Below, piece by piece: positions 44,170-59,196 of a stretch of 64,000 nucleotides of DNA. Numbering within the stretch: the stretch's first letter is position 1; each line of letters opens with the position of its first letter. The stretch covers positions 3,992,001 through 4,056,000 of the forward strand of contig NZ_CP042467.1 in assembly GCF_007993755.1 (NCBI RefSeq). The letters are read 5' to 3'. The position numbers and the translations under genes were made by a program. The DNA comes from Microvenator marinus (lineage in GTDB: Bacteria > Myxococcota_A > Bradymonadia > Bradymonadales > Bradymonadaceae). The notes beneath the pieces were generated by a model. That model was not told the origin of the DNA, searched no databases, and saw only the letters and a program-made list of their open reading frames with translations.

Positions 44170-44249
44170 TCGATATTTCTAGGTTAATCCCGAAAAAGCG
44201 TCAAGTTCCTTGAAAAATCGATCTATGACATCGAAATTTCTAGGATGAT
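44170..44249. repeat. Imperfect direct repeat around TTTCTAGG
   Basis: TCGATATTTCTAGGTTAAT (44170-44188) and TCGAAATTTCTAGGATGAT (44231-44249) agree at most positions and are 61 bases apart. They lie just upstream of the DUF4143 gene and at the broken 5' end of the lipoprotein relic. They might be operators, or marks of a recombination that fused unrelated sequences. Confidence 0.35.
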
Positions 44250-44912: not shown

Positions 44913-45194
44913 TCACTTTCCGCCAACATATCTGAAAACAGAAGCCAACCAGACCAAGCCGTAACGAACCGGAGCATCCGTTCCGTCTGCCATGCGGTTC
45001 ACCGCCTCCCAATCCTCCTCCAAATTACCAAGAGTCAAATCAGTGGGTTCAGCGTACGCATTGTACCGTTGAATGTTTGGCACGTCCCAATAGAGAGGCC
45101 ATTCAACCTCTATTTCTTCGTTCCCAATTTCACTCTCGAGAGCTTCAAACAAAGAGAGAGACAGAGTTCTCAATTCTTCGATCGTAACCTTCAT
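44913..45194 (-). CDS. Small acidic protein, immunity-like, unrecognised
   Basis: 93 residues. The pattern LRTLSLSLFEALE, then EWPLYWDVPNIQRYNAY, LGNLEEDW and YGLVWLASVFRYVG looks like a widespread family of small soluble proteins found in immunity-gene clusters, but I cannot name it. It starts one base after the stop of the neighbouring 171-residue gene, so the two are co-transcribed. It is the last gene of the minus-strand array. Confidence 0.6.
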   Translation of the reverse strand: MKVTIEELRTLSLSLFEALESEIGNEEIEVEWPLYWDVPNIQRYNAYAEPTDLTLGNLEEDWEAVNRMADGTDAPVRYGLVWLASVFRYVGGK

Positions 45195-45195
45195 T

Positions 45196-45711
45196 TCAGA
45201 CTCCTATCTGGCTGCGCGATCGCAGTTTGTCCCGCAACATATCGATTTCGCGGCTTGATAGCCCAATCAATTCCGCATGGAGGTCTGCAAGACAATGAAA
45301 TCCAGCGTGATCTGAGTAGGCGGCGTAGACATCTCCAGGCGAGGTATCAGACACGATGACATCGATCGATTGAGTACAATCTTCACCGCCACACCAAGCA
45401 ATCTCAGCCCCGCGTGCGGTGAACCACCTTAAGGAGTGCTCGACATTCTTCAGCCACCGTGTCGAATCTACACGCTCAAACCTAACTTCAATCGCGAGAT
45501 TCGCATTGTTAGCGCCTTCCCAATACCTGGGAAGAATCTCTACCAATCCGTCCGACCAGATCTCTCGGAAGGTCCCGATTTCATCGACTATTGAGACGTC
45601 GAAACCCTCCACCCAATACCCATAAAAGATGAGTCCAAAGACTTCCTCGAACGGATTCCCTGCTTCACCGCTAAATCTCCACATGATGTATAGGCCATCA
45701 ATCGTCTTCAT
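45196..45711 (-). CDS. Hypothetical soluble protein in immunity array
   Basis: 171 residues with no signal peptide or membrane segment. It is rich in aromatic and acidic residues (GYWVEGFDVSIVDEIGTFREIW, SLRWFTARGAEIAWCGGEDC, SDHAGFHCLADLHAELIGLSSREI). The size, acidic character and neighbours fit an immunity-type protein, but no known family was identified. Confidence 0.55.
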   Translation of the reverse strand: MKTIDGLYIMWRFSGEAGNPFEEVFGLIFYGYWVEGFDVSIVDEIGTFREIWSDGLVEILPRYWEGANNANLAIEVRFERVDSTRWLKNVEHSLRWFTARGAEIAWCGGEDCTQSIDVIVSDTSPGDVYAAYSDHAGFHCLADLHAELIGLSSREIDMLRDKLRSRSQIGV

Positions 45712-45809
45712 GGCTGTATTCTACAAACTCGGCATGCTTCCAAATTATCTTCTTTGCCTCAGTTGCCGCCGCAACGACCAGCATCCATTTCTAGATTCAC
45801 CATGTCTTC

Positions 45810-46469
45810 CTATTCTGATCTAAGCCTAGGGCTGCGCATCATTTCAATTGGTATCTCAAGTGACTTAAACTCGTCTCGCCAGGTATCCGATAGGTTTTGG
45901 GCCAGCTCACTTATGGCTATTGCATCGACCTCACGATTGCAGGCGAAAACGACATCGAGGCGAGTCGAAACCCAATCTCTTTCGTCGTTTGGATCAAACG
46001 TGGGGTCGAGTTCCTCCCCAACCAAGAGTTCTTTGGAAACGCCGACAATTATGTCCAGCACCATTTCGAACGCCAAAGGTTCTCTGGTCAGGAAGGCCTC
46101 GGGTTGGAACCAAGACAGCACATGTTGCTTTCCTGCGTAGCCTCCCCAGCCAAATGTGCGAATCAAGTCGATCAGGGCATCTGGATTGGCTCCGAATTGG
46201 TTGACCAACGGCGCCGCCTTGAAAACCTCCTCGTAGAATCTCGCAAGGCTTGTGGTTTCTCTGCCGTCTATCAGCGGTTTGAGCGCCACCTTTGGAAACT
46301 GCGTTCCCACAAAATCCTCAAGCTGATGAAGACTCCTAACGTCGTACAAGATGTGAATCCAGGGTGCTTCCAATCCGCCTACCTCCGCCTTTTTACGTCC
46401 ACGTGGACATGCATCGCAAACATACTCATCATCTTGAAGACCTAGGCGTGCCCTTAATCTTCTGTGCAA
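45810..46469 (-). CDS. Barstar-like immunity protein
   Basis: 219 residues from a TTG start, so the N-terminus is uncertain. The central region LIDGRETTSLARFYEEVFKAAPL followed by QFGANPDALIDLI matches the barstar fold signature (DG, then a helix, then FG-x-N-x-DAL). Barstar-type proteins inhibit ribonuclease toxins of the barnase type. The N-terminal CDACPRGRKK has a cysteine pair. The upstream DNA (46470-46948) is frame-broken and may once have belonged to this or a neighbouring gene. Confidence 0.6.
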   Translation of the reverse strand: MHRRLRARLGLQDDEYVCDACPRGRKKAEVGGLEAPWIHILYDVRSLHQLEDFVGTQFPKVALKPLIDGRETTSLARFYEEVFKAAPLVNQFGANPDALIDLIRTFGWGGYAGKQHVLSWFQPEAFLTREPLAFEMVLDIIVGVSKELLVGEELDPTFDPNDERDWVSTRLDVVFACNREVDAIAISELAQNLSDTWRDEFKSLEIPIEMMRSPRLRSE

Positions 46470-46948
46470 CCGAGCAACTTTCCGACAAGATCGACGTAGT
46501 GGAAAAGATCAACTCCAAAAACATCATACTCGACGAGAATCCCAAAGTAACTTTGGACACCTCTAAGATGGGCGTCCAGCGATACCTTCAGCGAGAGTCC
46601 AAGTACATGACGCTCAAACTTGGAGGGCTAGAACTTCAATCTCTTGCGGCGAAAATTCTACTATCAGAGGCACGTCAGACGAGGGAAGCTCTTGGTTCTC
46701 CTTGCCAGTTGCCAACGACAAGAGTTTTGATGCTAAGGCCCATCTTCCTCGAAGCCAATGGACACGGTACGGCGTCCGAACTCACGCGTAGGACTGGACC
46801 AGCCGCCAAACTTCTTAAGCAGGTCATCGACATCGGTCGGACAAACTGGGAAGAGTTGAGGGTTGGAGATTTCGTAGTCGAAGTGCATTTTTACGAATGC
46901 CAATCCAGCGCTGCAAAGCCGGATGTCTTCGGGCGAAAGGAGAGTCAT
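46454..46948 (-). pseudogene. Frame-broken coding remnant upstream of barstar-like gene
   Basis: Three minus-strand frame pieces read as protein-like but are broken by shifts. Piece one (46948 to 46733) starts MTLLSPEDIRLCSAGLAFVK and ends GFEEDGP. Piece two contains RWALASKLLSLATGKEN and VPLIVEFSPQEIEVL. Piece three contains LGLSLKVSLDAHLRGVQ and VDLVGKLLGCTED, ending at 46454. Together they suggest one or two decayed genes. A plus-strand open frame across the same region is possible but less natural. No family is recognised. Confidence 0.4.
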
Positions 46949-46975
46949 CAGGTGCCTTCGTCTGGAGCATCGGCA

Positions 46976-47434
46976 CTACGTGCTTCCTTCACAACCAGCC
47001 AAGTTTGCAACCAGGACCCGATTGCAAAGTTCAAAAACACACGGCACACATAGAGAAAGTGCAAGACCAACATGAAAGCCTTCTCGACTCGCCGTGCGTA
47101 CGCTCTGGTTTGACATCAGTGTCAACATATACATGTCTGAGCTCGACATCGTGATGGGCACCAACCCACAACTTGTTGACGTGTGAGCAGCGAGTTTACT
47201 GGATAGGGTGAGAAACACCTCAGGGGTCGCGCTCTCCGGGCGAGCGCCCGTGGTCATTAAGAACTCATAGCGCGTTCCTGAGTCGGCGAGGCTCAGGCTT
47301 AAATACCGAGCCCATAGTTCTATCACCTTCCACAACGACCATTCCAAAACTACTCGCACATTCGACCTTGGTTCTGACATCCAAAACCGACGAACGCTCC
47401 GAAGCATATCTTCATCATCCAAATGGCTCACCAT
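46976..47434 (-). CDS. Hypothetical protein, possibly frameshifted at its end
   Basis: 152 residues. The first ~80 residues (LDDEDMLRSVRRFWMSEPRSNVRVVLEWSLWKVIELWARYLSLSLADSG) look like a normal soluble protein; the last ~70 are Ser/Thr/Cys-rich and less natural, so the frame may be shifted near residue 80. The start overlaps the stop of the 181-residue gene upstream by 7 bases, indicating co-transcription. Confidence 0.45.
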   Translation of the reverse strand: MVSHLDDEDMLRSVRRFWMSEPRSNVRVVLEWSLWKVIELWARYLSLSLADSGTRYEFLMTTGARPESATPEVFLTLSSKLAAHTSTSCGLVPITMSSSDMYMLTLMSNQSVRTASREGFHVGLALSLCVPCVFELCNRVLVANLAGCEGST

Positions 47435-47973
47435 TGGTCGATCTCTGCTTCGACGATTTTGGCTACTATTTCTGACATGGATTTGCGACTTTCTTCCGAC
47501 CGTTTACGCAGTTTGGAATATCGTTCATGATCCAACGATAGGCTGATTTGTTTTTTGCGCGTTGGTGATTCGAACTCCAGCCAAAGCGCATGAATGGCTC
47601 CACTATCGAAGAAGTCGATCACAATGCCTTTTTCTGTCGTGATTGTGTTTTCACCATCAATTGAAAAGCCTAAGGCCTTGGCGCGCAATCCTTCTATCAC
47701 CTCCGTCATCGTTATTCCTGATTGGAAGAACCACAAGTCAATGCGGGGGAATTCCATGTGAAAGTGGTCAACGTAAATCAGTTTGGTTTTGCCCTCTTGA
47801 GAAAAGTGAAACTCCACGGGCCCGTAGCGCCAGAGTAAATTTGAGTTCTTACCCACACCCTGGTCGTCGGGGGGGCCCAAAATCGCTCGTACTTTCTCAC
47901 GGTGAGGAACTGATCCCAAAACCGAGAACTCGCCCAAAGTTAAGAACTCCTCCAAGTTGAGCGTCATTGTCAT
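47428..47973 (-). CDS. Immunity-like protein with C-terminal ribbon-helix-helix motif
   Basis: 181 residues. The N-terminal ~130 residues (FSVLGSVPHREKVRAILGPPDD, LLWRYGPVEFHFS, IDLWFFQSGITMTEVIEGL) look like a beta-rich immunity-type domain. The last ~40 residues (KQISLSLDHERYSKLRKRSEES, then SMSEIVAKIVEAEI) match a CopG/Arc-type ribbon-helix-helix. The fusion could let the protein also bind DNA and regulate the array. Its start overlaps the A1 lipoprotein stop by 4 bases. Confidence 0.6.
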   Translation of the reverse strand: MTMTLNLEEFLTLGEFSVLGSVPHREKVRAILGPPDDQGVGKNSNLLWRYGPVEFHFSQEGKTKLIYVDHFHMEFPRIDLWFFQSGITMTEVIEGLRAKALGFSIDGENTITTEKGIVIDFFDSGAIHALWLEFESPTRKKQISLSLDHERYSKLRKRSEESRKSMSEIVAKIVEAEIDQW

Positions 47974-49007
47974 TTCTTCCCATCCTTCAGTGCCTTGCTC
48001 GACTCCAACTCTCGCCAGGATTCAAGCGACAAGAGTTCGATGCTCCGATGTTTTTCGTAGAAATTAGCCGGCATATCGCCCCAATCACGACACATAACCT
48101 CGTTTCCTTCGGTCACTCCACAAAAATGAAAGTTTCCGGCCGAGAGCTCTCTGACTTTCACATCGTAGCGATCCCCGTCCATGTTTTCGTGCGAATAGCA
48201 CTCCACGCGATCCCCGAAATTCAGGCAAGCCTTCCCCCCGCACGAGTATTCTACCACGCTCTTTTTGACCACCCTCGGATACACCCCATATGCGTCGTTT
48301 AGTCTCATGGCTTCTTCAGGCGGTAGAGCAAACCAACACGTCACATCCGATGGTGACCCCACCTTTCGCGCACAGACGTAGAGTTCATCCTGACAAGGAG
48401 CCTCGAAACCTTCGAACTCCAAAAAGAGCCCCTCGTAGTCATTGGCGTAGATGGATAGCGGCTCACAGCTTACTCCGGTGGACGTTGAGCCACACAAGCT
48501 ATGGTTACTAACCGATATGTCCAAGTAGTGACCTGAAAAGCGTCGAAGCTCTTCACGCGATAACCCAGACGATAGACCCCAGCGGTGGCCCCAACATTCT
48601 GGCTTTCCAGCCGCGTCCATCCAGCACATCAGATTCCAGCTTGAGGACACCTGACTTGTTCCGAACTCAGGTGGTTGAAGAATGATTTCCGCGGCTTCCA
48701 ATGATCCGAACGAGGGATCTCCAAAGCACTCGCCGTTCTCCAGACAAATCGTCGCAGGCCCGACAGCTCGAGTTCTCACCTCAGGGCGATGGAACACAAT
48801 CGGCGCATCCGGCATTGATTTCCCATCCCAAGACGCGGGATATCGACCCGCGAAACACGTGGTTCCGCCCCCTTGATTGACGCAGGTGATGATGCCAGAT
48901 GTCATCAGCTCAATTGGCGTTGTTTTCTTCGCTTCACTGCATCCAACCGCCGTCATGAGCAACGGGAAAACTGCCCATTTCTTGATGTGATTCCAAAGCA
49001 TCTCCAT
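47970..49007 (-). CDS. Propeller-like lipoprotein A1 (array family)
   Basis: 345 residues. The signal ends in MTAVGC (Cys23). Seven cysteine pairs (42/51, 88/94, 128/138, 172/181, 212/224, 261/270, 296/306) are spaced about 42 residues apart, each making a short hairpin such as ITCVNQGGGTTCFAG or HFCGVTEGNEVMC. This spacing fits a seven-bladed RCC1-like propeller with one disulfide per blade. The protein ends with ELLSLESWREL, a tail shared by the family. It is nearly a copy of A3. Function unknown. Confidence 0.72.
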   Translation of the reverse strand: MEMLWNHIKKWAVFPLLMTAVGCSEAKKTTPIELMTSGIITCVNQGGGTTCFAGRYPASWDGKSMPDAPIVFHRPEVRTRAVGPATICLENGECFGDPSFGSLEAAEIILQPPEFGTSQVSSSWNLMCWMDAAGKPECWGHRWGLSSGLSREELRRFSGHYLDISVSNHSLCGSTSTGVSCEPLSIYANDYEGLFLEFEGFEAPCQDELYVCARKVGSPSDVTCWFALPPEEAMRLNDAYGVYPRVVKKSVVEYSCGGKACLNFGDRVECYSHENMDGDRYDVKVRELSAGNFHFCGVTEGNEVMCRDWGDMPANFYEKHRSIELLSLESWRELESSKALKDGKK

Positions 49008-49013
49008 TCGTCG

Positions 49014-50030
49014 TCATTCCTGCTCAGAAGCTTCTATCCAAGGGCCATGAGATTTATCTTGCACTGTTGGAAACGAGATTTTTGACCGGGGTCGATGCAC
49101 CTCCTTCCACGACTCAAGGGATAAGAATTCGAGCTGACGATTCTCTCGCACCGTCGTTTGGATCTTGTCGTTGAGATACCGACACAGGAGCTCGCCGTTT
49201 GTCGTGATTCCACAGAAGTGATTGGTGCCGACGGCCAATGAGTGGACCTCAACGTCAAATCTTGAAACGTCACCATGCTTCGAACGGCACTCAACCCGTT
49301 TTCCGAAGTTGAAACACGCTAACTCGCCGGCGCCGTACTCCTTTACCCGCTCAAGGGTGATCTGAGGGCCCTCTTCAAATCTACATCGCACCTCTCCAGG
49401 CTCATTGATCTTGCGTGCACAAAGCAAGGTTTCCGACATCTGTGGCCGCTCAAAACCCTCCCACCGCAGAGACCCCGGGCCTTCATTCTGAGTGTCCGCC
49501 AAGAGTGATTCGCACTGGGTAGCTCCGTCCACCGAACCGCAAATGGTCTGGCTGTACATGACGATATCTTTGTATTTTTGTTTGGGGGCTCGGACTCCTT
49601 CAGCCTCACCGCGACACTCGACTTCGCCCGATGTATCTCGCCAGCAAACAATGTTGATGTCAGCGGCCAATTCCGTCACCGTGCGCATATCGATCTGCTG
49701 AAGCACCGCCTCGGCCGCGGCCAATGAACCCATTCGAGCGTCCCCATAACACGTGCCGTCCTCGAGACAGATTTGGTAGGGAGCAACCATCGCGACCGTC
49801 TTGTCTGGCCGATGAAACGAGATGGGAACACCAGGTAGGCCGGCGCCGTCCCAGAGCTCGGGCTGAAGACCTCCAAAGCAAGTCGAAGAGTCACCAATAT
49901 TCACGCAAGTCACGACACCCTTAACCTTGAGCTCGAGAGCTTGATTCAACTGGCGTTGCTCACAACCCTGGCAGGCCGCAGCAAAAGAGCCCAAAGCTAT
50001 TACCGCAAGATTGATACAAAGGAGGTGCAT
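49014..50030 (-). CDS. Propeller-like lipoprotein A2 (array family)
   Basis: 338 residues from ATG 50030, giving a signal ending in SFAAAC. The seven-hairpin pattern is kept (VTCVNIGDSSTCFGG, ICLEDGTCYGD, VCWRDTSGEVEC, ICGSVDGATQC, LLCARKINEPGEVRC, ACFNFGKRVEC, FCGITTNGELLC), as is the tail QLEFLSLESWKEV. It is the more diverged member lying between the near-identical A1 and A3. A longer upstream frame to 50096 exists but lacks a signal. Confidence 0.7.
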   Translation of the reverse strand: MHLLCINLAVIALGSFAAACQGCEQRQLNQALELKVKGVVTCVNIGDSSTCFGGLQPELWDGAGLPGVPISFHRPDKTVAMVAPYQICLEDGTCYGDARMGSLAAAEAVLQQIDMRTVTELAADINIVCWRDTSGEVECRGEAEGVRAPKQKYKDIVMYSQTICGSVDGATQCESLLADTQNEGPGSLRWEGFERPQMSETLLCARKINEPGEVRCRFEEGPQITLERVKEYGAGELACFNFGKRVECRSKHGDVSRFDVEVHSLAVGTNHFCGITTNGELLCRYLNDKIQTTVRENRQLEFLSLESWKEVHRPRSKISFPTVQDKSHGPWIEASEQE

Positions 50031-50053
50031 CCCAGTTCTTGTGTTCTTTCGTT

Positions 50054-51085
50054 TCACTTTCCCCTCTCGTTGCTCGACTCCAACAACTCTCGCCAAGATT
50101 CGAGCGACAAGAGCTCAATGCTCCGATGTTTTTCGTAAAAACTGGCCGGCCTATCTCCCCAATCACGACACACGACCTCGTTTTCTTCCGTCACTCCGCA
50201 AAAATGAAAGTTTCCGGCCGAGAGTTCTCTGACTTTCACATCATAGAGCTCCCCGTCCATATTTTCGTGCGAATAGCACTCCACGCGATCCCCGAAATTC
50301 AGGCAAGCCTTCCCACCACAAGTGTATTCTACCACGCCCTTTTTGACGACTCGGGGATAGAATCCGTATGGGTCGTTTCTTCTCATAGCCTCTTCGGGCG
50401 GGAGGGCAAACCAACACGTCACATCCGAAGGTGCCCCCACCTTTCGCGCACAGACGTAGAGTTCGCCCTGACAAGGAGACTCGAAACCTTCAAACTCTAA
50501 AAAGAGCCCATCGTGGTCATTGGCGTAGATGGATAACGGCTCGCAGCTTACTCCGGTGGAAGTTGAGCCACACAAGCTATGGTTACTAACCGACATGTCC
50601 GAGTAGCGACCTGAAAAGCGTCGAAGCTCTTCGCGCGATAACCCCGACGTTAGACCCCAGCGGTGGCCCCAACATTCTGGCTTTCCAGCCGCGTCCAACC
50701 AGCACATGAGGTTCAAGCTTGTGGACAAGTTGCTCCCAAACTCCGGTGGTTGAAGAATGATTTCAGCAGCCTCCAGTGTCCCGATCCAGGGGTCTCCAAA
50801 GCACTCTCCATCCTCCAGACAGATGGCCCAAGGGCCAACAACGCGAGTTCTTGCATCAGGGCGATGGAACACAATGGGCGCGTCAGGCATCGATCTCCCG
50901 TCCCAAGACGTGGGATATCGACCCGCGAAACACGTGGTTCCGCCCCGTTGATTGACGCAGGTGATGATGCCAGATGTCATCAGCTCCAAACCAGTATCCG
51001 TTGTTTTCTTCGTTTCACTGCATCCAACCACCGTCCCCAGCAACAGCAATGCAGCCCATGGCTTCTTTCGTTTCATGGAACTCAT
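50054..51085 (-). CDS. Propeller-like lipoprotein A3 (array family)
   Basis: 343 residues from ATG 51085; ATG 51076 is an alternative three codons in. The signal ends in GTVVGC. Sequence and cysteine pattern are almost the same as A1 across the whole length, showing a recent duplication or gene conversion. The promoter region of the divergent Imm8 gene is just upstream (65 bases). Confidence 0.72.
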   Translation of the reverse strand: MSSMKRKKPWAALLLLGTVVGCSETKKTTDTGLELMTSGIITCVNQRGGTTCFAGRYPTSWDGRSMPDAPIVFHRPDARTRVVGPWAICLEDGECFGDPWIGTLEAAEIILQPPEFGSNLSTSLNLMCWLDAAGKPECWGHRWGLTSGLSREELRRFSGRYSDMSVSNHSLCGSTSTGVSCEPLSIYANDHDGLFLEFEGFESPCQGELYVCARKVGAPSDVTCWFALPPEEAMRRNDPYGFYPRVVKKGVVEYTCGGKACLNFGDRVECYSHENMDGELYDVKVRELSAGNFHFCGVTEENEVVCRDWGDRPASFYEKHRSIELLSLESWRELLESSNERGK

Positions 51086-51149
51086 ATAGTGGTTACTTTT
51101 TGTTTGAGTCAGAAGCCTATGAATTGTTCCCACTAGGGCTTGAAAAAAA

Positions 51150-51515
51150 ATGATCGCACAACTGAAAGACCTCTCGTCGTACGAGATTGACGAAGACCTC
51201 GCAAGCTACACTCCGGAGGTCTTTGACAATTTCGAACTCACCATTCTGGCTTCAATTGGTGTGAACGGGACGGAAGGGGCTGACCTCTTTCAGTTCGAGA
51301 TTTGTACCCCAAAATCTCTATCTGACCGATGCGAAGGCGGAGAGGTTGTGGCAGGGCGAGGCAAGCTCATTGTAGGTCACTACGACTACGCGGCGATTCG
51401 GCAGTACTTGGACCGGATCTGCTCCCAGTGTTCTGGCGATGATTGGCCGGAAATTGTGGAGAAGTTGAGCCGTTACGGATTGTGGGAGTTTGAAGGATAC
51501 GAGAGATTCGCCTAA
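51150..51515 (+). CDS. Immunity protein, Imm8 family
   Basis: 121 residues. The pattern FELTILASIGVNGTEGADLFQFEICTPKSL, then GKLIVGHYDYAAIRQYLDRICSQC, and finally YGLWEFEGYERF matches Imm8, an immunity family of polymorphic toxin systems. It is the only gene of the array on the plus strand. Its 3' end overlaps the neighbour on the minus strand by 4 bases. It is the strongest evidence that the array is an immunity locus. Confidence 0.8.
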   Translation: MIAQLKDLSSYEIDEDLASYTPEVFDNFELTILASIGVNGTEGADLFQFEICTPKSLSDRCEGGEVVAGRGKLIVGHYDYAAIRQYLDRICSQCSGDDWPEIVEKLSRYGLWEFEGYERFA

Positions 51516-51778
51516 GTCTGCTTGTCCAACGACTCATCTGCCCTATGGAACCGAGACGGGCCGTCGGGCAGTACATGTTCTAGAAACTTCGTGGCCATCA
51601 CTCCGAACTCAGCAAAGTTCTTCTGTGCTTCTTCTAGCGAAAGGTGGTTGGGACCTGGTATGTCGTCGAAGACAATCTCGTGGTTTTCCCAAAAGCAAAC
51701 ACTCTCTGCGGTGATCTCCACAAACGCGACGTCGCTGAAGGGCAAGATTTCGAAGCCCGAACTCAATAAGACTGCCAT
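51512..51778 (-). CDS. Small acidic hypothetical protein in immunity array
   Basis: 88 residues, no signal or membrane helix. Beta-strand-like start (VLLSSGFEILPFSDVAFVEIT) followed by a helical EEAQKNFAEFGVMATKFLEHV. Size and neighbours fit an immunity protein; no family recognised. It overlaps the convergent Imm8 stop. Confidence 0.5.
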   Translation of the reverse strand: MAVLLSSGFEILPFSDVAFVEITAESVCFWENHEIVFDDIPGPNHLSLEEAQKNFAEFGVMATKFLEHVLPDGPSRFHRADESLDKQT

Positions 51779-51792
51779 CTTTCAATCCCTCG

Positions 51793-52170
51793 TCAACTGG
51801 ACTTCGACTTAACCAGGTCTTGGCTGAAGGCAACCATAAATTCTGTGCGATCCTCCTTCGTTAGAAGGAGATAGTCAGACAGGTTCCACTGGAGGAAATC
51901 ATTGATTTCACATGGGAGCGCTGGATCAAGGGGCAAGTTGTGGCACACATTCAGTTCGAGCGCCGCATCCTCCAAGAAGTCCGCCTCAATCAATGCTTCA
52001 ACTCTATCCAACTCCAAACTCATCGTCCTGGGGAAACGCGAAGGCCTAGCCATGACGCGAAGATCATTCAAACACTCTTGAATTTCCGGCGGAAGAGCAC
52101 CTCGACTCAATGCATTTCGAAGTATACAGAGAAGGATTTGTCCATCTTTATAGGTTAAAACATCACTCAT
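51793..52170 (-). CDS. Hypothetical helical protein in immunity array
   Basis: 125 residues, mainly helical and acidic (GQILLCILRNALSRG, ELDRVEALIEADFLEDAALEL, DFLQWNLSDYLLLTKEDRTEF). No family recognised. It is spaced 14-16 bases from its neighbours on the same strand, consistent with co-transcription. Confidence 0.5.
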   Translation of the reverse strand: MSDVLTYKDGQILLCILRNALSRGALPPEIQECLNDLRVMARPSRFPRTMSLELDRVEALIEADFLEDAALELNVCHNLPLDPALPCEINDFLQWNLSDYLLLTKEDRTEFMVAFSQDLVKSKSS

Positions 52171-52185
52171 CGCTAACCTTCCAAC

Positions 52186-52470
52186 TCATGTGTCAAATGC
52201 AGCGAAATATCTAATCTCGCCAGTTTGCACCAGATCTTCGATACAGCGTTCAACCACGTCTTGCGACAACTGTTCGACCACAATCATTTGAGCAGCCCAA
52301 AGATATCCAACACCGTTTGGCGCAGATTCACGAATTAGCCGAGTCACATTCGCGAGGGTAAAGAAACTAGGGAAAAACCGCTCCCCCGTTTCGAGAGCAA
52401 CCTCAACATCAATGTTGTCGTCGTGCTGGTCTTGAATGGGATGCATGTACTTAATCGAATATCTACTCAC
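52186..52470 (-). CDS. Small hypothetical protein in immunity array
   Basis: About 94 residues. A GTG start at 52470 is chosen because GAAGG lies six bases upstream; a longer frame extends to 52545 and would overlap the next gene. The core (VEVALETGERFFPSFFTLANVTRLI, YLWAAQMIVVEQLSQDVVERCIEDLVQTGEI) looks like a soluble alpha/beta protein. No family recognised. Confidence 0.5.
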   Translation of the reverse strand: MSRYSIKYMHPIQDQHDDNIDVEVALETGERFFPSFFTLANVTRLIRESAPNGVGYLWAAQMIVVEQLSQDVVERCIEDLVQTGEIRYFAAFDT

Positions 52471-52541
52471 CGAATACCTTCTGTCTTTTTGGAGGTGGCA
52501 ACCATTACTAGCTTCTACGCTCTTCTCGCTGCACCTACGAT

Positions 52542-53123
52542 TCATTGGGACTGAAATTCATCCAACATTCTCAAAATGCTTGGTCGATATCGACCAAGCA
52601 GGAACCGGTCTGCGTAGGCTGAATCGTGATCGACTTCACGATCATTGAGGTCGAGAAACGTGGCTTGCCAAACACCTGTGGGAGGAATCGAAAGGTGCGG
52701 AATCCAGAGACTCCTCAAATCGCGATATCCACCGAGCTCGACCTCTGTATCAACACCAGCCTCTAGATCGACAATGGTCTGCGCCAGGGCGCTTACACAA
52801 AGAGCCAATTCAAACACGGGCTCATAAGCCTCATCATCTTCGAGATTCCATGTGTCTTCGAGTGGCGGGTCAAAACCGCGTAAGCCGGCACGGAGTGCAA
52901 TTACACGATCTGCAACCTCTTCAGAAATCGTTTCGCGTGAATCGACTCGAGACCAAGTATCCACGAGCAGGGTGCGCAAGAATTCTACAGCGATATCTGA
53001 GTGGTACTCGAAGAGCAGGCAGAGCATCCATTCGAGGCAAGGGCACTCCACATAGAAATCATTTGGCGGTGAGTGACTATTGGCGGAGACCCCATAGGGG
53101 TTCCAGTTCGCACTTGGAGCCAT
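52542..53123 (-). CDS. Hypothetical protein in immunity array
   Basis: 193 residues, soluble and acidic. It is helix-rich at first (LEWMLCLLFEYHSDIAVEFLRTLLVDTW) with a beta-rich end (SLWIPHLSIPPTGVWQATFLDLNDREVDHDSAYADRF). No recognised domain. It is in line with the array and likely another immunity-type gene. Confidence 0.5.
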   Translation of the reverse strand: MAPSANWNPYGVSANSHSPPNDFYVECPCLEWMLCLLFEYHSDIAVEFLRTLLVDTWSRVDSRETISEEVADRVIALRAGLRGFDPPLEDTWNLEDDEAYEPVFELALCVSALAQTIVDLEAGVDTEVELGGYRDLRSLWIPHLSIPPTGVWQATFLDLNDREVDHDSAYADRFLLGRYRPSILRMLDEFQSQ

Positions 53124-53152
53124 AAGCTTCCAAAACTGAGAGCGTACTTCTG

Positions 53153-53587
53153 CTATTCATCATGAAAGTCCAAACGCGCTACGCCCTGACTCCGCAGGGT
53201 TCTTTCCAGAGCTTCCAAGTCGCGCAACTCACCACCAACATACTTCAAGCTGTAGTGCGCATCGGGTGATGGCCAGGGTTCATCATAGCTATATCCCTCA
53301 AGCATATCGAGCACGCCGTCCTTGATGTAGAGCAAGAAACCGACCTCGGTGCGTGTTTTTGGAAACTCGCAAACTACATCGCCGAACGTGACATCAAGCC
53401 CTCCGATCCGTGGCAAATGGTCAGGTACCGAAAGGCTAGTAAAGAAGCCGACTCCGGTATGCTCGCGGTCATTTACGATACACTCGACAAGTTGCTCTCG
53501 TAGGTTGACGAAGAACGGAAGGTCGCCCTCAAGCAACTTCTGCAATATCGCGTTCTCAAATCTCGATAGTGAGTTTTGCATACTCAA
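53153..53587 (-). CDS. Hypothetical protein in immunity array
   Basis: 144 residues (ATG 53581 is an alternative start two codons in). It has a helical start (FENAILQKLLEGDLPFFVNLREQL) and a beta-rich middle and end (VGFFTSLSVP, VGFLLYIKDGVLDMLEGYSYDEPWP). The latter segment gives the look of a conserved soluble family that I cannot name. It lies downstream of the A4 lipoprotein gene. Confidence 0.55.
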   Translation of the reverse strand: MSMQNSLSRFENAILQKLLEGDLPFFVNLREQLVECIVNDREHTGVGFFTSLSVPDHLPRIGGLDVTFGDVVCEFPKTRTEVGFLLYIKDGVLDMLEGYSYDEPWPSPDAHYSLKYVGGELRDLEALERTLRSQGVARLDFHDE

Positions 53588-53593
53588 TACTTC

Positions 53594-53660
53594 TCAGTGG
53601 ATAGTTGGAGCCCAAAGCTCACGGCATGACAGCACGCATTCCGTGGTAGCGGGTTCAAGA
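53594..53660 (-). pseudogene. 3'-end relic of the Zn-ribbon-like gene
   Basis: In the minus direction this piece reads SLEPATTECVLSCRELWAPTIH and a stop, very like the C-terminus of the 167-residue gene at 58662-59165 (RPATTQRVLACRELWAVC). It has no start or remainder of the gene. It sits directly after the A4 lipoprotein stop. Confidence 0.5.
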
Positions 53661-53663
53661 GAC

Positions 53664-54641
53664 TCAGTCTTTTGACCTTGGTTCGGCGAGCAAATCGCGC
53701 CAGGACTCAAGGGAAATGAACTCCAAACTGCGATGTTTCGAAAAGTAGTCCTTACCCTTGTCATTAAGCGTTCTACACAAGACTTGGTTGGCTTTTGTAA
53801 CTCCGCAGAAATGAAACGTTCCCACCGAGATCTGTACTAGCTCAACCTCGAACTTTTTGACTCGGGAAGAATCATGAGAATAGCACTCGACGCGGTCTCC
53901 AAAGTTCAGACACGCCTCACCGCCACACGAGTACTCTAGGACACCACTGCGTTTGATATCAGGTTTGCCATCAAACCAACACGTTACCTCGGTCACGTTG
54001 TCTCTTCGGCGTGCGCACACATAGTATTCGTCTAGGCACGGTTTTTCATAGCCCTCAAACTCTCGAAACAACTCGGGAGATTCGTTGGCATGGACGGAGA
54101 GTGGTTCGCACTTGACACCTGAGCGGGTCGTGCCACAAATCTCCAACGAGTTGAGCTCTATGTCTTCGTACTCAGTAGCTATATCTCGAATGTCCGCTCC
54201 AGACATGTTTCTGAAGTAACTCCAGTTCTCTCCCACACAATCTGGGTGTTTGTCTGGCCCCAACCAACACAAGAGGTTGATGTGCGCCGAGACGTGGTCG
54301 CCTCGAAAATTTGGTGGCTTTAGAACGGTCTCAGCGGCCTCCAAAGACCCCAGTGTTGCATCACCGAAGCACCTACCATCATCAAGGCAAACCCATTGTG
54401 GTCCTACAACGCGAGCGGTGGCTTTGGGCCGATGAAAAACGATAGGTACGTCAGGCAAGCTCGTCCCATCCCATAGCTTCGGATATTTTCCAGCAAAGCA
54501 CGTTGTACTGTCCGCACGATTGACACACGTGATGTTCGCCGCTGTTCGCAACTCGATGGGAGTTGCATCGTTTGAGCCGTTGCCGCTACATCCACAGACG
54601 ATAGCAAACAACAGGCTATGAAACCCGTTTTGATTCACCAT
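53664..54641 (-). CDS. Propeller-like lipoprotein A4 (array family)
   Basis: 325 residues. The signal ends in IVCGC. It keeps the family plan: ITCVNRADSTTCFAG, VCLDDGRCFGD, LLCWLGPDKHPDC, ICGTTRSGVKC, YVCARRRDNVTEVTC, ACLNFGDRVEC, FCGVTKANQVLC, and the tail LEFISLESWRDL. It is clearly diverged from A1/A3, so the family has been expanding over a long time. Confidence 0.7.
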   Translation of the reverse strand: MVNQNGFHSLLFAIVCGCSGNGSNDATPIELRTAANITCVNRADSTTCFAGKYPKLWDGTSLPDVPIVFHRPKATARVVGPQWVCLDDGRCFGDATLGSLEAAETVLKPPNFRGDHVSAHINLLCWLGPDKHPDCVGENWSYFRNMSGADIRDIATEYEDIELNSLEICGTTRSGVKCEPLSVHANESPELFREFEGYEKPCLDEYYVCARRRDNVTEVTCWFDGKPDIKRSGVLEYSCGGEACLNFGDRVECYSHDSSRVKKFEVELVQISVGTFHFCGVTKANQVLCRTLNDKGKDYFSKHRSLEFISLESWRDLLAEPRSKD

Positions 54642-54670
54642 TCCCTCCGGTCAATTCGACGTCGCTAATA

Positions 54671-54949
54671 CTACCTTCCTTCTAAGTCCTGGCCGTCAGA
54701 AGTCCGTAGTAACTCAGCGCACACACGCTCCAAATCTCTCACGTGCTCTTCGAGCGAGGGATCATAACCGGTCCCCAAGTCATTGATCAGGATACCCTCT
54801 ATGCAATTCGCCAAACGTTCTTGATCGTGAAGGCAAGCCACTATCCTGGGCACATACTCATCGTATTCAACGCCAGCGATATGTGCTGGTACTTCCAGAG
54901 GGTTCCATTGGGTCAAGATGTCACTGATTTTTTCGGTGATGCTTGTCAT
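54671..54949 (-). CDS. Small protein of DUF1871-like appearance
   Basis: 92 residues. The pattern ISDILTQWNPLEVP, then YDEYVPRIVACL, and ending LEEHVRDLERVCAELL resembles small helical proteins of the DUF1871-type group found in immunity-like settings. The resemblance is by eye only. The ATG at 54949 follows a small remnant frame (54950-55066) with no gap. Confidence 0.45.
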   Translation of the reverse strand: MTSITEKISDILTQWNPLEVPAHIAGVEYDEYVPRIVACLHDQERLANCIEGILINDLGTGYDPSLEEHVRDLERVCAELLRTSDGQDLEGR

Positions 54950-55066
54950 CTATTGCGTTCCAACTTCTCGTCCCTGCTTGCTCATCGTCGCCATCATTAC
55001 TCTTTTGCGAAGCGTCAAGTTGTCAAATCTTCCCCGTTCTCCAGCCAACTCAAGCAAACGCTGCAC
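54950..55066 (-). other. Small open frame or coding remnant after A5
   Basis: A 38-residue open frame from GTG 55066 reads VQRLLELAGERGRFDNLTLRKRV and MMATMSKQGREVGTQ. It lies in the same frame as A5, four codons after its stop, and ends directly before the next ATG. It could be a small protein or the tail of a lost gene. Confidence 0.3.
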
Positions 55067-55078
55067 GCCGCCATTTGC

Positions 55079-56098
55079 TTACTTAGGCTCGTCGCGAAGT
55101 CCTCCAGCGTCCCGCTTGGATTTACCTTCCAGATTTCGCCACGACTCCAAAGATAAGAGTTCAATTCCACGATACTCGTCGTAGAGTTTCTCAACCTTGT
55201 CATCAAAAGAACGACAAATGACGTCACCGTCCAAAGAAAGTCCGCAAAACTGAAAAGACCCCACAGAAAGTTTTTGAATTTGCACATCGAAGGTTTTCAC
55301 CTCACCGTCGCGAGCATGGCACTCCACGTTTCCAGCCCGGTTGAGGCAGACCTGTGAGCCGCACCCATACTCCACCACACCTCTAAAGTTGACCCTCTTG
55401 GGTATGCCCCCAACTTCCTCATGTTCGAATTCACAGAAGATATCACTCGGAGAATCGCGACTTCTCGCACAGAGGAGAGCATCGTTCATGTACGTCTTTT
55501 CGAATCCTTTAAAGGTCTTAAACTGCGGGCTGTCTTCATGTGGCTCGGTCCATAGTGGACTGCATTCGACTCCATCTTTTGTCGTTCCGCAGATTGTGGT
55601 GCTGTTGATAGCAATTTCTGAGAAGCGCTCCGAAACACTTGCAATTTGCTCAGATGTGAATGCACGCAGCGGCCCCCAATTGTGGCCCCAGCAGGTCACG
55701 GTTTCATCTTGATTTTGCTGACAAACGATATTGATGTGAGCGGCAAGAGAGCCAGAGGCTTCTATCGGTTGAAGGACCACCTCGGCAGCTTCCAAGGAGC
55801 CAATCACCGGATCTCCAAAACAGGCGCCATCGTCGAGACATATCTGAAACGGACCGACCAGCTTCACATTCTTGTCTGGACGATGAAAGATAATGGAAGC
55901 ATTTGGCATGGTGGTAGTGTCCCATTGCTGCGGATACGCACCACCAAAACACGTGCTGCCTGCACCGTGATTCACACACGTAAGGGCTCCACTCGAGTGG
56001 ATTTCTTTCGCCACGTGTTTGCGTTGGTCGGCGTCGCAGCCAAAGAGAATGGAGGTCAAGGCGAACAACATCCGAAAATGGCAACTAAGTAGCTTCAT
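55079..56098 (-). CDS. Propeller-like lipoprotein A5 (array family)
   Basis: 339 residues. The signal ends in SILFGC. Seven hairpins are visible: LTCVNHGAGSTCFGG, ICLDDGACFGD, VCQQNQDETVTCWG, ICGTTKDGVEC, LLCARSRDSPSDIFC, VCLNRAGNVEC, FCGLSLDGDVIC; the tail is GIELLSLESWRNL. It is first in the transcription order of the five family members. It overlaps the membrane-protein gene upstream by 4 bases. Confidence 0.7.
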   Translation of the reverse strand: MKLLSCHFRMLFALTSILFGCDADQRKHVAKEIHSSGALTCVNHGAGSTCFGGAYPQQWDTTTMPNASIIFHRPDKNVKLVGPFQICLDDGACFGDPVIGSLEAAEVVLQPIEASGSLAAHINIVCQQNQDETVTCWGHNWGPLRAFTSEQIASVSERFSEIAINSTTICGTTKDGVECSPLWTEPHEDSPQFKTFKGFEKTYMNDALLCARSRDSPSDIFCEFEHEEVGGIPKRVNFRGVVEYGCGSQVCLNRAGNVECHARDGEVKTFDVQIQKLSVGSFQFCGLSLDGDVICRSFDDKVEKLYDEYRGIELLSLESWRNLEGKSKRDAGGLRDEPK

Positions 56099-56463
56099 TT
56101 TTCTCCAAAACGGTTGGAGCCTTCACTCTTCCTGGCTCTTTGGTAGAACCAGTTGGCCACTAGTGCCGGTACCATCATGCAAGCGGCTGATGCGGTGACG
56201 AGTACAGCAAGCTGTATATAGAAAACGGGCGCTACCAACCAGTACACTGCGAAAGCTATCGCCGCACTTAGAGTTGCCGACGCCATACCACCTAAGAAGT
56301 ATTTTCCATTCCCGCTGAATCTGATGGTCACGAAATGGACCCAAATCCATAAGAACATCACATTGCCGTAGTACATGTACCTTGCGGTAATGACGACAGC
56401 TGCGATTCCCACCAACCAGGTCAATACCAACTTTTTGCGTTCAGCGCCTTGAAATCGCTCCAT
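56095..56463 (-). CDS. Small multi-pass membrane protein
   Basis: About 122 residues from ATG 56463 (MERFQGAERKK); a longer frame to 56520 overlaps the next gene. Three to four hydrophobic segments are visible (LTWLVGIAAVVITARYMYY, VMFLWIWVHFVTI, ATLSAAIAFAVYWLVAPVFY, IQLAVLVTASAACMMVPALV). It ends with a basic tail. It could be an inner-membrane immunity protein; no family recognised. Confidence 0.6.
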   Translation of the reverse strand: MERFQGAERKKLVLTWLVGIAAVVITARYMYYGNVMFLWIWVHFVTIRFSGNGKYFLGGMASATLSAAIAFAVYWLVAPVFYIQLAVLVTASAACMMVPALVANWFYQRARKSEGSNRFGEK

Positions 56464-56476
56464 AACAAATCCATTG

Positions 56477-56767
56477 CTACAGGTCGCAGCACTCTCCTGG
56501 CTCACGCCAACACAAATCAACGGTCTCGGTAATCGTATCGTCAGTTAGGAGACAAACGTCCAGCGTCTGACCGTCACTGTCAACGAACTCAATCAACACT
56601 GCGAAAGAAGGGTCTGTGAAAACCATCACCACTGTTCCTTGCGTCCCAATTGGGAAATCAGTTCCAGGGAGCTCCTGCTTCAACTCGACCACGTCATAGA
56701 GTCTTAGTTTGGTTGTGCGCTTCTTCACTCCGGACGCCTTCCATTTTGATCGGCAAAGCCACTTCAA
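56477..56767 (-). CDS. DUF4926 domain protein
   Basis: 96 residues. KLRLYDVVELKQELPG, then FPIGTQGTVVMVF and VLIEFVDSDGQTLDVCLLTDDTI match the small beta-barrel DUF4926 family, which is common in toxin-immunity and other accessory clusters. A plausible start is the ATG at 56767, overlapping the stop of the broken gene upstream by 4 bases. Confidence 0.7.
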   Translation of the reverse strand: MKWLCRSKWKASGVKKRTTKLRLYDVVELKQELPGTDFPIGTQGTVVMVFTDPSFAVLIEFVDSDGQTLDVCLLTDDTITETVDLCWREPGECCDL

Positions 56768-57935
56768 GGTATCAGTTCCTCCCTAATCTCCAACCAACCC
56801 AAGCAAAACCCTTTCACCGCCAGATAACCTCGCAACGCCACACACCTTGGTTCATCGACCCACAAGGAGTCGAAGAGTGTCTCAAGTTTCTCGAACGCTA
56901 CTCGAGCTTCCGCAAACTCAGAGGGTACGATTTTTCCTGCCAGTCCGCGAATGGCTGCACCCTGACAATAGCGGAATGGCTCCACGAACTCGTTACCTAC
57001 AGAAGGGACCACGTGTTGTCCGAGCTCCTGCATGAAGTACGAGACGATTCCCAGGTCGGTCGGCTCAAAGTTCTCCAAGTCGCTAGGAATAGTCTGGATT
57101 TCTTCCTCCCGTGTCTCGAGATTAAGTCGTACCCATGCGTGCATCAGGATGACAAACGAAATGTAGCGATCACCTGCAGACCATTCGTATCTTGCCTGAG
57201 AATCTAGTTTCTGAAAGAGGGGTAAACCTTGGTCCATTCGTGATACACGCGATTCGGTGTCAGATGGCAGCTTCCCTTTCAGCAGATACGATGTGGCGCC
57301 AAACACGTGTTCGCAGAACAATACACGGATATAGAATTCTTCCTTGCTCACGCGACCAAGCAGCCTATTAACCCGCTGGTAGAGTTGGCCGTTTAGAATC
57401 GTTAAGGTTGAGAAAGGGTTCATCCGGGAAACTAATGTGGTTCGTCCAACATACTCAGGCCAGCCATGGGAAGTCTCGGGGCGAGAGACCTCCGCCGATG
57501 GATACCGAACCAGCGCTAGCCAAGCTACGTAAGTCGGTTTCGTCCATCTGTGGCAGATCCGCTCCTTGAGAGCCCGAACTACGTCCTTTTCCGGAAAGTC
57601 TCCCGGCTCCGTCCAAGCGGCCGGTATGGTCATGACATCACATCCAGCGTCGTGAGGCACAAAGAACTTGCTCATCACACACGGAACTCGCCAGTCGCGA
57701 GGAAGCGACTCAACGAGCGTTGCGCCGTCAACCCATTCCAACTGCGCAACACCAACTCGGCCGTCGTCTTGCAGGCGACCAGCTGCGCGCAGTGCGTGGA
57801 GCTCGCGCTTAAGATCACCGGAAAGTGCGATGAAAAACCGGTCAGCACCGGCCTGAAAGTATTCTTCAATATCGGCAGGAAGTATTCTTCAATATCGGCA
57901 GGATTGCCTGAAGAAAAGACAGCAAGTTCGGCCAT
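56764..57935 (-). pseudogene. Large array gene broken by a 23-bp tandem duplication
   Basis: From ATG 57935 the protein begins MAELAVFSSGNPADIEEYF, then the frame is lost inside a duplicated 23-base segment (57857-57879 and 57880-57902). Removing one copy restores one continuous reading frame of about 382 residues: after EEYF it continues QAGADRFFIALSGDLKREL, then ALRAAGRLQDDG, WVDGATLVESLP and on to WLEIREELIP. The family is unknown. It is soluble and large for an immunity protein. As sequenced, only the C-terminal part (from about 57741, or ATG 57675) is open. Confidence 0.75.
57857..57902. repeat. 23-bp perfect tandem duplication
   Basis: AAGTATTCTTCAATATCGGC plus AGG occurs twice in a row (57857-57879, 57880-57902), with no mismatch. 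Because 23 is not a multiple of three, the second copy shifts the reading frame of the gene it lies in and brings a stop codon into frame. It may be reversible by slippage, or an assembly error. Confidence 0.9.
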
Positions 57936-57938
57936 CAA

Positions 57939-58460
57939 TCACACCGCACACGTCCTGATTGAAACTTCGAATTCGATTCTTTCTCGTTTGAGTCTCGCGT
58001 CCCGATAAACCTTGTTAGCAAAGTCAATCTCAATAGTGTTCAGATGAGTACCTTCCAGTCTTTGAGTCTGTGTGATGTCACCACCCACTATGTGCCGGAC
58101 CAATTCATGGCCCTCAAAAATTAGGATCCCTCCATCCAAAGCTAGCACAGCCTCCTGAGAGTGTACCGCCCCCGTAATCTGCCCACATGCCACAGAATTC
58201 CATTGAGAAGGTTTCAGAGTAATGACGATGATTGAGTAGAATTCGTCACGCGCAAGGCAGATCTCGTTTGCAGATTCGAGCCATTCTTCGGCTTTCTCTA
58301 CGCACTCTAGTATCCGAAAAACAACCTCATCAACAGCGTTTGACTCAGTATCTTCCCAAGGGTCCATTCTCTCGGCGGCAATAATCACGACCGATGATCC
58401 TTCGTCCCTCACCACGAAACGTCGAACTTTGCCAATGCCCCAGTTTACACAAACTCTCAT
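57939..58460 (-). CDS. Hypothetical soluble protein in immunity array
   Basis: 173 residues. Beta-rich with segments VRRFVVRDEGSSVVIIAAERM, VLALDGGILIFEGHELV and IEIDFANKVYRDARLKRERIEFEV. No signal or membrane helix. Its stop is 3 bases from the next start. Family not recognised; position suggests another immunity-type gene. Confidence 0.5.
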   Translation of the reverse strand: MRVCVNWGIGKVRRFVVRDEGSSVVIIAAERMDPWEDTESNAVDEVVFRILECVEKAEEWLESANEICLARDEFYSIIVITLKPSQWNSVACGQITGAVHSQEAVLALDGGILIFEGHELVRHIVGGDITQTQRLEGTHLNTIEIDFANKVYRDARLKRERIEFEVSIRTCAV

Positions 58461-58475
58461 AGTACCGCCGACTTC

Positions 58476-58589
58476 TTAGTGGAGCTTCGTGATATCCGGC
58501 ACCCAAAGCTCCGGGCATGACAGCACGCGTTCCGTAGTAGCAGGTTCAAGAAACTCATCCCATTCCATCGTTGCTCTTCTTCCCAAAGC
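58476..58589 (-). pseudogene. 3'-end relic of the Zn-ribbon-like gene
   Basis: The minus-strand frame reads ALGRRATMEWDEFLEPATTE, then RVLSCPELWVPDITKLH and a stop. It aligns with the end of the 58662-59165 protein (GDEILRPATTQRVLACRELW). No start, and the upstream part is out of frame. It is the second of two such relics. Confidence 0.55.
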
Positions 58590-58661
58590 GCGTGACGCCC
58601 GCCGTCCGGAGGAAACAACATTTGTTACCTTTCGGTTGTCGATATCTTCCCCCCAGATAGC

Positions 58662-59165
58662 TCAACACACTGCCCAAAGCTCACGGCAAGCCAACACTCG
58701 TTGGGTGGTAGCAGGTCGAAGAATCTCGTCTCCCTCCCAACATTGGCCGTTTGCTCTTTGACAGCAAACACACTGCTTACACTCCAGCACTGGAATGTCT
58801 TCTTCTGTAGCCTCCATGATACGCATACCTGCTCCACAGTTGTTGCAGTTCGAAATTGCTTCCAACGTTATCCCTTCCCAAAAAATTTCACTGATAAACA
58901 TACCAAAACTATCGAGTGACGATGGAGGATATTTCTTGATTTGAGCAAGCTCAACTTCAGGAGAGAGCGTTGCCAACTCAACCGGGTACGGGGCTAGATC
59001 TGCAGTCGCAATCCACTCAAGTCCCCATGCAGCGCGAGTCTCCTTATTCCAAAATCGCAATTTCGCGTTCAACCAACGCTGAAGAACCTCCAGGAACTCT
59101 CGACGTTCTCCCGTAAACGAAGACACTTCGCGAAAAAAATCTGACAACAGTGTTTGCACTCTCAT
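58662..59165 (-). CDS. Hypothetical protein with C-terminal Zn-ribbon-like cysteines
   Basis: 167 residues. The first ~100 are helical (LLSDFFREVSSFTGERREFLEVLQRWLNAKL). The C-terminal part has cysteine pairs CNNCGAGM and CKQCVCC, as in zinc ribbons. It ends RVLACRELWAVC. Two relics of this end occur elsewhere in the array. Function unknown. Confidence 0.55.
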   Translation of the reverse strand: MRVQTLLSDFFREVSSFTGERREFLEVLQRWLNAKLRFWNKETRAAWGLEWIATADLAPYPVELATLSPEVELAQIKKYPPSSLDSFGMFISEIFWEGITLEAISNCNNCGAGMRIMEATEEDIPVLECKQCVCCQRANGQCWEGDEILRPATTQRVLACRELWAVC

Positions 59166-59196
59166 GAACTCTCCAACCGCCGAGTACGTTTTGGCT

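What the first reader, a model, noticed from the sequence alone, without database searches (positions are those of the whole stretch)
47970..56098. Five paralogous lipoproteins with seven cysteine hairpins each
A1-A5 each have a lipobox and seven C-x(5-11)-C pairs about 42 residues apart (A1: 42/51, 88/94, 128/138, 172/181, 212/224, 261/270, 296/306). That matches a seven-bladed RCC1-like propeller with one disulfide per blade. All end with a SLESW-type tail. Their place among immunity-like genes suggests a surface-exposed binding or blocking role rather than a housekeeping one.
Basis: partly seen in the sequence, partly recalled or inferred. Interest (0 to 1): 0.8.

Follow-up and report, generated by a model that had tools for sequence, protein, structure and literature searches.

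The report
Five disulfide-pinned propeller lipoproteins in immunity island
A probable predatory bacterium carries five related, membrane-anchored, seven-bladed propeller proteins inside a small island of toxin-resistance-type genes; the shape is a well-known one, but this set is found in no other genome searched and may be a shield that plugs toxins arriving from rival bacteria.

Summary
Five paralogous genes (38-83% identical) each encode a lipobox and seven conserved Cys pairs, far more regular than chance. Two AlphaFold models of different members (moderate confidence) match RCC1-type seven-bladed propellers best: UVR8, RCC1, RPGR, BLIP-II and the plant CRINKLY4 ectodomain, which also has one Cys pair per repeat. 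Each predicted disulfide joins neighbouring strands of one blade. Profile comparison links the family to the Cys-RCC1 lipoproteins that abound in this genome and its relatives.

The functional claim is only half supported. The genes lie in a low-GC, same-strand, toxin-free array with Barstar, Imm8 and other small genes, and A1 and A5 overlap neighbours by ATGA. That fits a polyimmunity locus. But there is no ortholog in 57 class genomes, in 378 other genomes of the phylum, or in the GTDB, viral and plasmid collections. Distant Cys-RCC1 relatives sit singly among other genes, and nine Imm8/CPCC loci of relatives hold none. The immunity link rests on one locus.

Best guess: toxin-blocking immunity lipoproteins of the envelope, working like X-Tfi(XAC2610), Tsi1 or BLIP-II (about 0.4). 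Main rival: ordinary Cys-RCC1 surface lipoproteins expanded there by chance. New variant of a known kind.

The parts
47970..49007 (-). A1: 345-aa lipoprotein, seven Cys hairpins, RCC1-like propeller
   Evidence: ORF and alignment; AF2 model pLDDT 70, pTM 0.73; Foldseek UVR8/RCC1/BLIP-II
49014..50030 (-). A2: paralog, 38% identical to A1, exactly seven Cys pairs and no extra couple
50054..51076 (-). A3: paralog, 83% identical to A1 (recent duplicate, dN/dS 0.25)
53664..54641 (-). A4: paralog, 48-49% identical to A1/A3
   Evidence: model of mature form pLDDT 63, best PDB match CRINKLY4 ectodomain
55079..56098 (-). A5: paralog, about 40% identical; Asp at +2 after the lipidated Cys
47428..47973 (-). 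181-aa cytoplasmic gene, ATGA overlap with the A1 stop; no family
46976..47434 (-). 152-aa gene overlapping the previous one; no family
45810..46469 (-). Barstar-family (ribonuclease inhibitor) immunity-type gene
   Evidence: Pfam PF01337 E 1.1e-8
51150..51515 (+). Imm8 immunity protein (the only plus-strand gene in the island)
   Evidence: Pfam PF15586 E 1.8e-33
51512..51778 (-). Small protein matching Cys_rich_CPCC (C-terminal part of the model only)
   Evidence: Pfam PF14206 E 6e-11
51793..53587 (-). Four small genes (125, 119, 193 and 144 aa) without families, compactly spaced
54671..54949 (-). 92-aa gene between A5 and A4, 29 nt before A4
56095..56520 (-). 141-aa hydrophobic (multi-span membrane) protein, ATGA overlap with the A5 start
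   Evidence: membrane spans read from sequence
56477..56767 (-). DUF4926 protein, coupled to both neighbours
   Evidence: Pfam PF16277 E 5.6e-15
56764..57741 (-). 325-aa gene heading the A5 operon; no family
44913..59514 (-). Whole candidate polyimmunity island: GC about 0.50-0.54 against 0.55-0.60 for most of the window to its left; bounded on the right by a frameshifted IS21-type element (59670-61985)

Best explanation
A1-A5 are extracytoplasmic immunity (inhibitor) lipoproteins of a heterogeneous, toxin-free polyimmunity locus. Shown or well supported: lipobox, seven-bladed RCC1-type propeller, Cys pairs placed to form one disulfide per blade hairpin, five diverged copies, co-transcription-like layout with other immunity-type genes. 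Inferred: the protein is exported, lipidated and oxidised; it sits at the periplasmic or outer face; loops on one propeller face bind an incoming envelope-active toxin or hydrolase and block its active site. The five copies would cover variants of one toxin class. The more variable blades 3-5 would carry specificity, and the conserved blades 1-2 plus SLESW tail a shared contact or the ring closure.
For: Propeller fold: strand runs fall in seven groups and every Cys pair lies on two consecutive strands. Top PDB matches are UVR8, RPGR, RCC1, CRINKLY4 and BLIP-II, E 2e-9 to 2e-6; the second member gives CRINKLY4 at 1.2e-6. Location: Barstar, Imm8, CPCC-like and DUF4926 neighbours, no toxin-sized ORF in the island, all but one gene on the same strand, ATGA overlaps of A1 and A5 with small genes, low GC. 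These match the published definition of polyimmunity loci: uninterrupted by toxins, same orientation, small gaps (PMC3482391). Five diverged paralogs in one locus, with A1/A3 under purifying selection (dN/dS 0.25). Blades 1-2 and blades 6-7 with the tail are conserved and the middle is variable (0.59, 0.51 and 0.41 mean pairwise identity; 1 of 303 circular shifts as extreme), as described for tandem TipC immunity proteins with lipoprotein signals (PMC9484751). Precedents: X-Tfi(XAC2610) is a lipobox immunity protein with beta-propeller topology that inhibits a lysozyme-like effector; Tsi1 and PliI-Ah are similar and insert a loop into the enzyme (PMC10933484; PMC3391265). BLIP-II shows that this very propeller class can inhibit an enzyme (PMC9218822).
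Against: One locus only: no ortholog in own class, phylum sample, GTDB, viral or plasmid collections, so there is no conserved association and no cognate toxin. Nine Imm8/CPCC loci in relatives have no Cys-RCC1 lipoprotein. The Cys-RCC1 lipoprotein type is common in this genome (about 18 other proteins) with no immunity neighbours. A1/A3 show no sign of positive selection. Only part of the island's genes have immunity families.
Confidence: 0.4

Rival explanations
1. Ordinary Cys-RCC1 surface lipoproteins (ligand, surface or prey binding) of the kind abundant in this genome, one of which landed in a low-GC island and was locally duplicated; immunity neighbours are incidental.
For: About 18 other Cys-RCC1 proteins in the genome, many with a lipobox; single-propeller Cys-RCC1 lipoproteins of 317-390 aa occur alone in relatives and in this genome; profile homology 97.5%, E 5.6e-12; no association in other immunity loci.
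Against: The A family has diverged strongly from the common type: RCC1_2 scores only around the Pfam cut-off and its genome mates match by blastp mostly at E 1e-3 or weaker (one A5 hit at 9e-7). It has five copies interleaved with immunity-type genes and translationally coupled to two of them.
Confidence: 0.33
2. Each lipoprotein works with a coupled neighbour (181-aa protein after A1; 325-aa, DUF4926 and membrane proteins before A5) as parts of one exclusion or toxin-resistance device spanning cytoplasm, membrane and envelope.
For: 4-nt start/stop overlaps or longer overlaps along 325aa/DUF4926/141TM/A5 and at A1/181aa.
Against: The coupled partners differ between A1 and A5, and no partner is paralogous to another (self comparison empty), so no repeated module exists.
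Confidence: 0.12
3. Surface decoys or receptor blockers, for example superinfection exclusion against phage or receptor masking against bacteriocins.
For: Lipoprotein, extracytoplasmic, diverged copies.
Against: No homolog in viral contigs; no phage genes seen in the island.
Confidence: 0.08
4. Lipoprotein toxins followed by immunity genes (as in SitA/SitI of Myxococcus, recalled from memory), i.e. A is the weapon rather than the shield.
For: Lipobox, small genes downstream of several A genes.
Against: No variable C-terminal toxin domain: homology runs the full length to SLESW; the whole chain is accounted for by the propeller; A3 and A2 have no following immunity gene.
Confidence: 0.04

Closest known systems
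Cys-RCC1 (RCC1_2, PF13540) lipoproteins of the same genome and class
   Same: Lipobox, C-x(7-10)-C hairpin in each blade, RCC1-type propeller; profile homology E 5.6e-12
   Different: A family has lost most CWG/RCC1 signature residues, has conserved FHRP / CxGD / GSLxAAE / SLESW motifs, five local copies, and lies in an immunity island
CRINKLY4 (ACR4) plant receptor ectodomain
   Same: Seven RCC1-like repeats of about 39 residues with one Cys pair each; best PDB match of the second model (PMC4617170)
   Different: Plant receptor kinase; C(X10)CWG motif conserved there, not here
BLIP-II
   Same: RCC1-like seven-bladed bacterial secreted propeller acting as an enzyme inhibitor
   Different: Soluble, no lipobox, no per-blade Cys; target is beta-lactamase
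X-Tfi(XAC2610), Tsi1 and PliI-Ah
   Same: Periplasmic (XAC2610 with lipobox) inhibitors of peptidoglycan hydrolases with whole or partial beta-propeller topology
   Different: Shorter, not RCC1-type, with a known target enzyme; no family relation shown here
Tandem TipC immunity genes
   Same: String of diverged paralogs with lipoprotein signal, conserved ends and variable middle
   Different: Crescent alpha/beta fold, Gram-positive, next to the TelC toxin
Imm65
   Same: Lipobox-bearing immunity protein of polymorphic toxin systems
   Different: alpha+beta fold, Bacteroidetes, paired with Tox-JAB-1

Membership tests
RCC1-like seven-bladed propeller superfamily | Seven blades of RCC1 topology | tested here: met
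   Two models (pLDDT 70 and 63), Foldseek to RCC1/UVR8/RPGR/CRINKLY4/BLIP-II. Blades 1-2 are poorly modelled in the second.
RCC1-like seven-bladed propeller superfamily | Detectable RCC1 sequence repeats | tested here: inconclusive
   One blade hits PF13540 near the cut-off (19.3-22.7 bits against 22) in three members; profile-profile with Cys-RCC1 proteins E 5.6e-12.
Bacterial lipoprotein | Signal peptide with lipobox Cys | tested here: met
   Sequence: VGC/AAC/VGC/CGC/FGC after a hydrophobic stretch. No dedicated predictor was run; lipidation not testable here.
Heterogeneous polyimmunity locus | Several unrelated immunity families together | tested here: met
   Barstar and Imm8 firmly; CPCC-like and DUF4926 as weaker candidates.
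Heterogeneous polyimmunity locus | No toxin genes inside; same orientation; small intergenic gaps | tested here: met
   No ORF over 345 aa; 22 minus-strand genes and one plus-strand; most gaps from -44 to 31 nt with a few of 76-506. Imm8 is the one exception in orientation.
Immunity protein of a polymorphic toxin system | Neighbour of, or proven neutraliser of, a toxin | tested here: not met
   No toxin at the locus; no ortholog beside a toxin anywhere. Neutralisation not testable with these tools.
X-Tfi(XAC2610) / Tsi1 / PliI family | Sequence or fold homology | tested here: not met
   Not among the listed Foldseek matches to the PDB (top 50 shown); no family hit. Functional resemblance only.

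The most novel reading that the evidence does not exclude
A previously undescribed immunity family: disulfide-pinned RCC1-type seven-bladed propeller lipoproteins, recruited from an abundant surface-lipoprotein stock into an orphan polyimmunity island, where diverged copies each block a different envelope-acting toxin through the propeller face.
Probability: 0.3. Interest if true: 0.6.

Novelty: new variant of a known kind. Interest (0 to 1): 0.4.

Why it matters
If true, a very common bacterial lipoprotein fold of unknown role would gain a testable function: toxin or hydrolase blocking in the envelope. It would also give RCC1-type propellers a place among immunity proteins, where a 2012 survey found no beta-propellers (PMC3482391) and only shorter or partial ones (Tsi1, X-Tfi) are described in the papers read here. 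For a probable predator that may face its own and its prey's hydrolases, a set of envelope inhibitors would be a plausible self-protection layer. If not true, it is a local expansion of a known lipoprotein type.

Tried and rejected
Integron cassette array: no attC-like inverted repeats; the only intergenic repeat, D5, is a gene-tail fragment. Mosaic or gene-converted paralogs: sliding identities show no clear switch of nearest partner apart from A2/A5 being closer in blade 2. Positive selection in A1/A3: dN/dS 0.25, changes not clustered. Close homologs in viruses, plasmids, GTDB, class and phylum: none. Repeated partner gene for each A: island proteins show no paralogy among themselves. T6SS in own genome: TssB not found. 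Two-partner secretion: not found, but the control did not ring either. NCBIfam gave nothing useful.
Full report
WHAT IS THERE. The window lies at 3,992,001-4,056,000 of a single-contig 5.85 Mb genome. Five minus-strand genes, A1-A5, lie between 47,970 and 56,098. They are 38-83% identical to A1 and align over their whole length. All have a hydrophobic leader and a lipobox-type Cys. Randomly placed Cys give seven such pairs in fewer than 1 in 1000 trials per protein. A1, A3 and A4 share an additional Cys couple (A1 205/256) that A2 lacks; A5 keeps only one of the two, so it has an odd Cys.

FOLD. Pfam sees only one weak RCC1_2 blade, at or just below the cut-off. AlphaFold2 on A1 with its four paralogs gave pLDDT 70 and pTM 0.73 for the best of five models, the others being poor. 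Its strands fall into seven groups, and each Cys pair lies on two consecutive strands. Foldseek against the PDB lists RCC1-type propellers first: UVR8, RPGR, RCC1, HERC, CRINKLY4 ectodomains and BLIP-II, E 2e-9 to 2e-6. TM-scores of about 0.5 and high rmsd mean topology, not detail. A second job on mature A4 (pLDDT 63; blades 3-7 confident, blades 1-2 not) again gave CRINKLY4 and RCC1-like domains. CRINKLY4 repeats are about 39 residues with a Cys pair each, described as likely disulfides on neighbouring strands (PMC4617170). Profile-profile comparison with five Cys-RCC1 proteins from this and related genomes gave 97.5% probability, E 5.6e-12, over blades 2-7. I consider the RCC1-type propeller claim about 90% sure and the seven disulfides likely but unproven.

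RELATIVES. The profile finds only these five in the own genome. In 95 relatives, the whole available class (57 genomes including own) and 378 other genomes of the phylum, only generic RCC1-type proteins appear, at 20-30 bits (the phylum run scored only the five best candidates per genome). GTDB contigs, viral contigs and plasmids gave nothing. The ordinary type is common: the own genome has about 18 other Cys-RCC1 proteins, several lipidated. Relatives have stand-alone 317-390-aa lipoproteins with about seven Cys hairpins, for example L062:7784-8749, L068:11455-12525 and L060:174-1127. Their neighbours are enzymes, transporters and unrelated lipoproteins, not arrays of small immunity-type genes (judged by eye).

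NEIGHBOURHOOD. From 44.9 to 59.5 kb the GC content is about 0.50-0.54 against 0.55-0.60 for most of the window to the left. All genes but Imm8 are on the minus strand, with gaps mostly from -44 to 31 nt and a few of 76-506 nt. Pfam supports Barstar (E 1e-8), Imm8 (E 2e-33), a Cys_rich_CPCC relative lacking the start of the model, and DUF4926. The rest have no family. No gene is longer than A1, so there is no toxin-sized ORF. The right edge is an IS21-type element with a split istA. A5 shares an ATGA start/stop with an upstream multi-span membrane protein, itself coupled to DUF4926 and a 325-aa protein; A1 shares ATGA with a downstream 181-aa gene; A3-A2-A1 are 23 and 6 nt apart. This fits the published description of heterogeneous polyimmunity loci (PMC3482391). 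As a control, I read nine Imm8 or CPCC loci in relatives. Some are also low-GC clusters of small genes, one lying downstream of a stretch similar to the end of an RHS toxin, but none contains a Cys-RCC1 lipoprotein. So the association is real here but not general.

HOW IT MOST LIKELY WORKS. An exported, lipid-anchored, disulfide-braced propeller is built to bind something outside the cytoplasm. The position in a toxin-free immunity array, the five diverged copies and the pattern of conserved ends with a variable middle (0.59 / 0.41 / 0.51 mean identity; 1 of 303 circular shifts as extreme) point to blocking a class of envelope-acting toxins. The same pattern is described for tandem TipC immunity paralogs with lipoprotein signals (PMC9484751). 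Propeller-like lipoprotein or periplasmic inhibitors of peptidoglycan hydrolases are established: X-Tfi(XAC2610), Tsi1 and PliI-Ah, which insert a loop into the enzyme (PMC10933484; PMC3391265). BLIP-II shows that the RCC1-type propeller itself can inhibit an enzyme. Steps shown: gene set, lipobox, fold class, Cys placement, locus layout. Steps inferred: export, lipidation, oxidation, target, blocking. I give this 0.4, against 0.33 for a chance local expansion of the common surface lipoprotein.

NOVELTY. Fold, lipobox and polyimmunity layout are all known separately. The combination, an RCC1-type, one-disulfide-per-blade propeller family in a polyimmunity island, I did not find described, and the family itself has no close relative in the data searched. 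Hence a new variant of a known kind, interest 0.4.

Noticed in passing
window 53600-53666, 58491-58557, 58662-58728: Three copies of a 56-67-nt stretch. In 58662-59165 it encodes the C-terminal tail PATTxRVLxCxELW; the other two are detached tail fragments, one directly behind A4, suggesting recombination scars in the island. No further copy in the genome.
   Followed up: partly
window 57857-57902: Perfect 23-bp tandem duplication just upstream of the 325-aa gene that heads the A5 operon; its length is not a multiple of three, so it could shift the reading frame of an upstream start.
   Followed up: no
window 59670-61985: IS21-type element with istA split into two overlapping frames (59670-60497 and 60485-61258) and istB at 61137-61985, at the right edge of the low-GC island.
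   Followed up: no
window 44245-44905: Plus-strand gene with EGF-like Cys region split between two frames at the left edge of the island.
   Followed up: no
L108:2514-8894 (genome 4,270,513-4,276,893): Lipoprotein-like RHS/teneurin-type polymorphic toxin candidate with a DUF6973 C-terminal domain, followed by a 134-aa membrane protein; a similar end-plus-membrane-gene pair lies about 8 kb upstream of the Imm8 gene in L082.
   Followed up: partly
L025:5158-5853 (genome 4,059,158-4,059,853): Truncated Cys-RCC1 protein without lipobox about 8 kb beyond the island's right edge.
   Followed up: no
A1-A5, about residues 54-112 of A1 (window 48672-48848): Unusually conserved motifs in blades 1-2 (W-D...FHRP...CxGD...GSLxAAE) not seen in ordinary Cys-RCC1 blades; perhaps a shared contact site.
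   Followed up: partly
A5 (55079-56098): Asp at +2 after the lipid Cys, an inner-membrane retention signal by E. coli rules, unlike Ser in A1, A3 and A4; copies may sit in different membranes.
   Followed up: no
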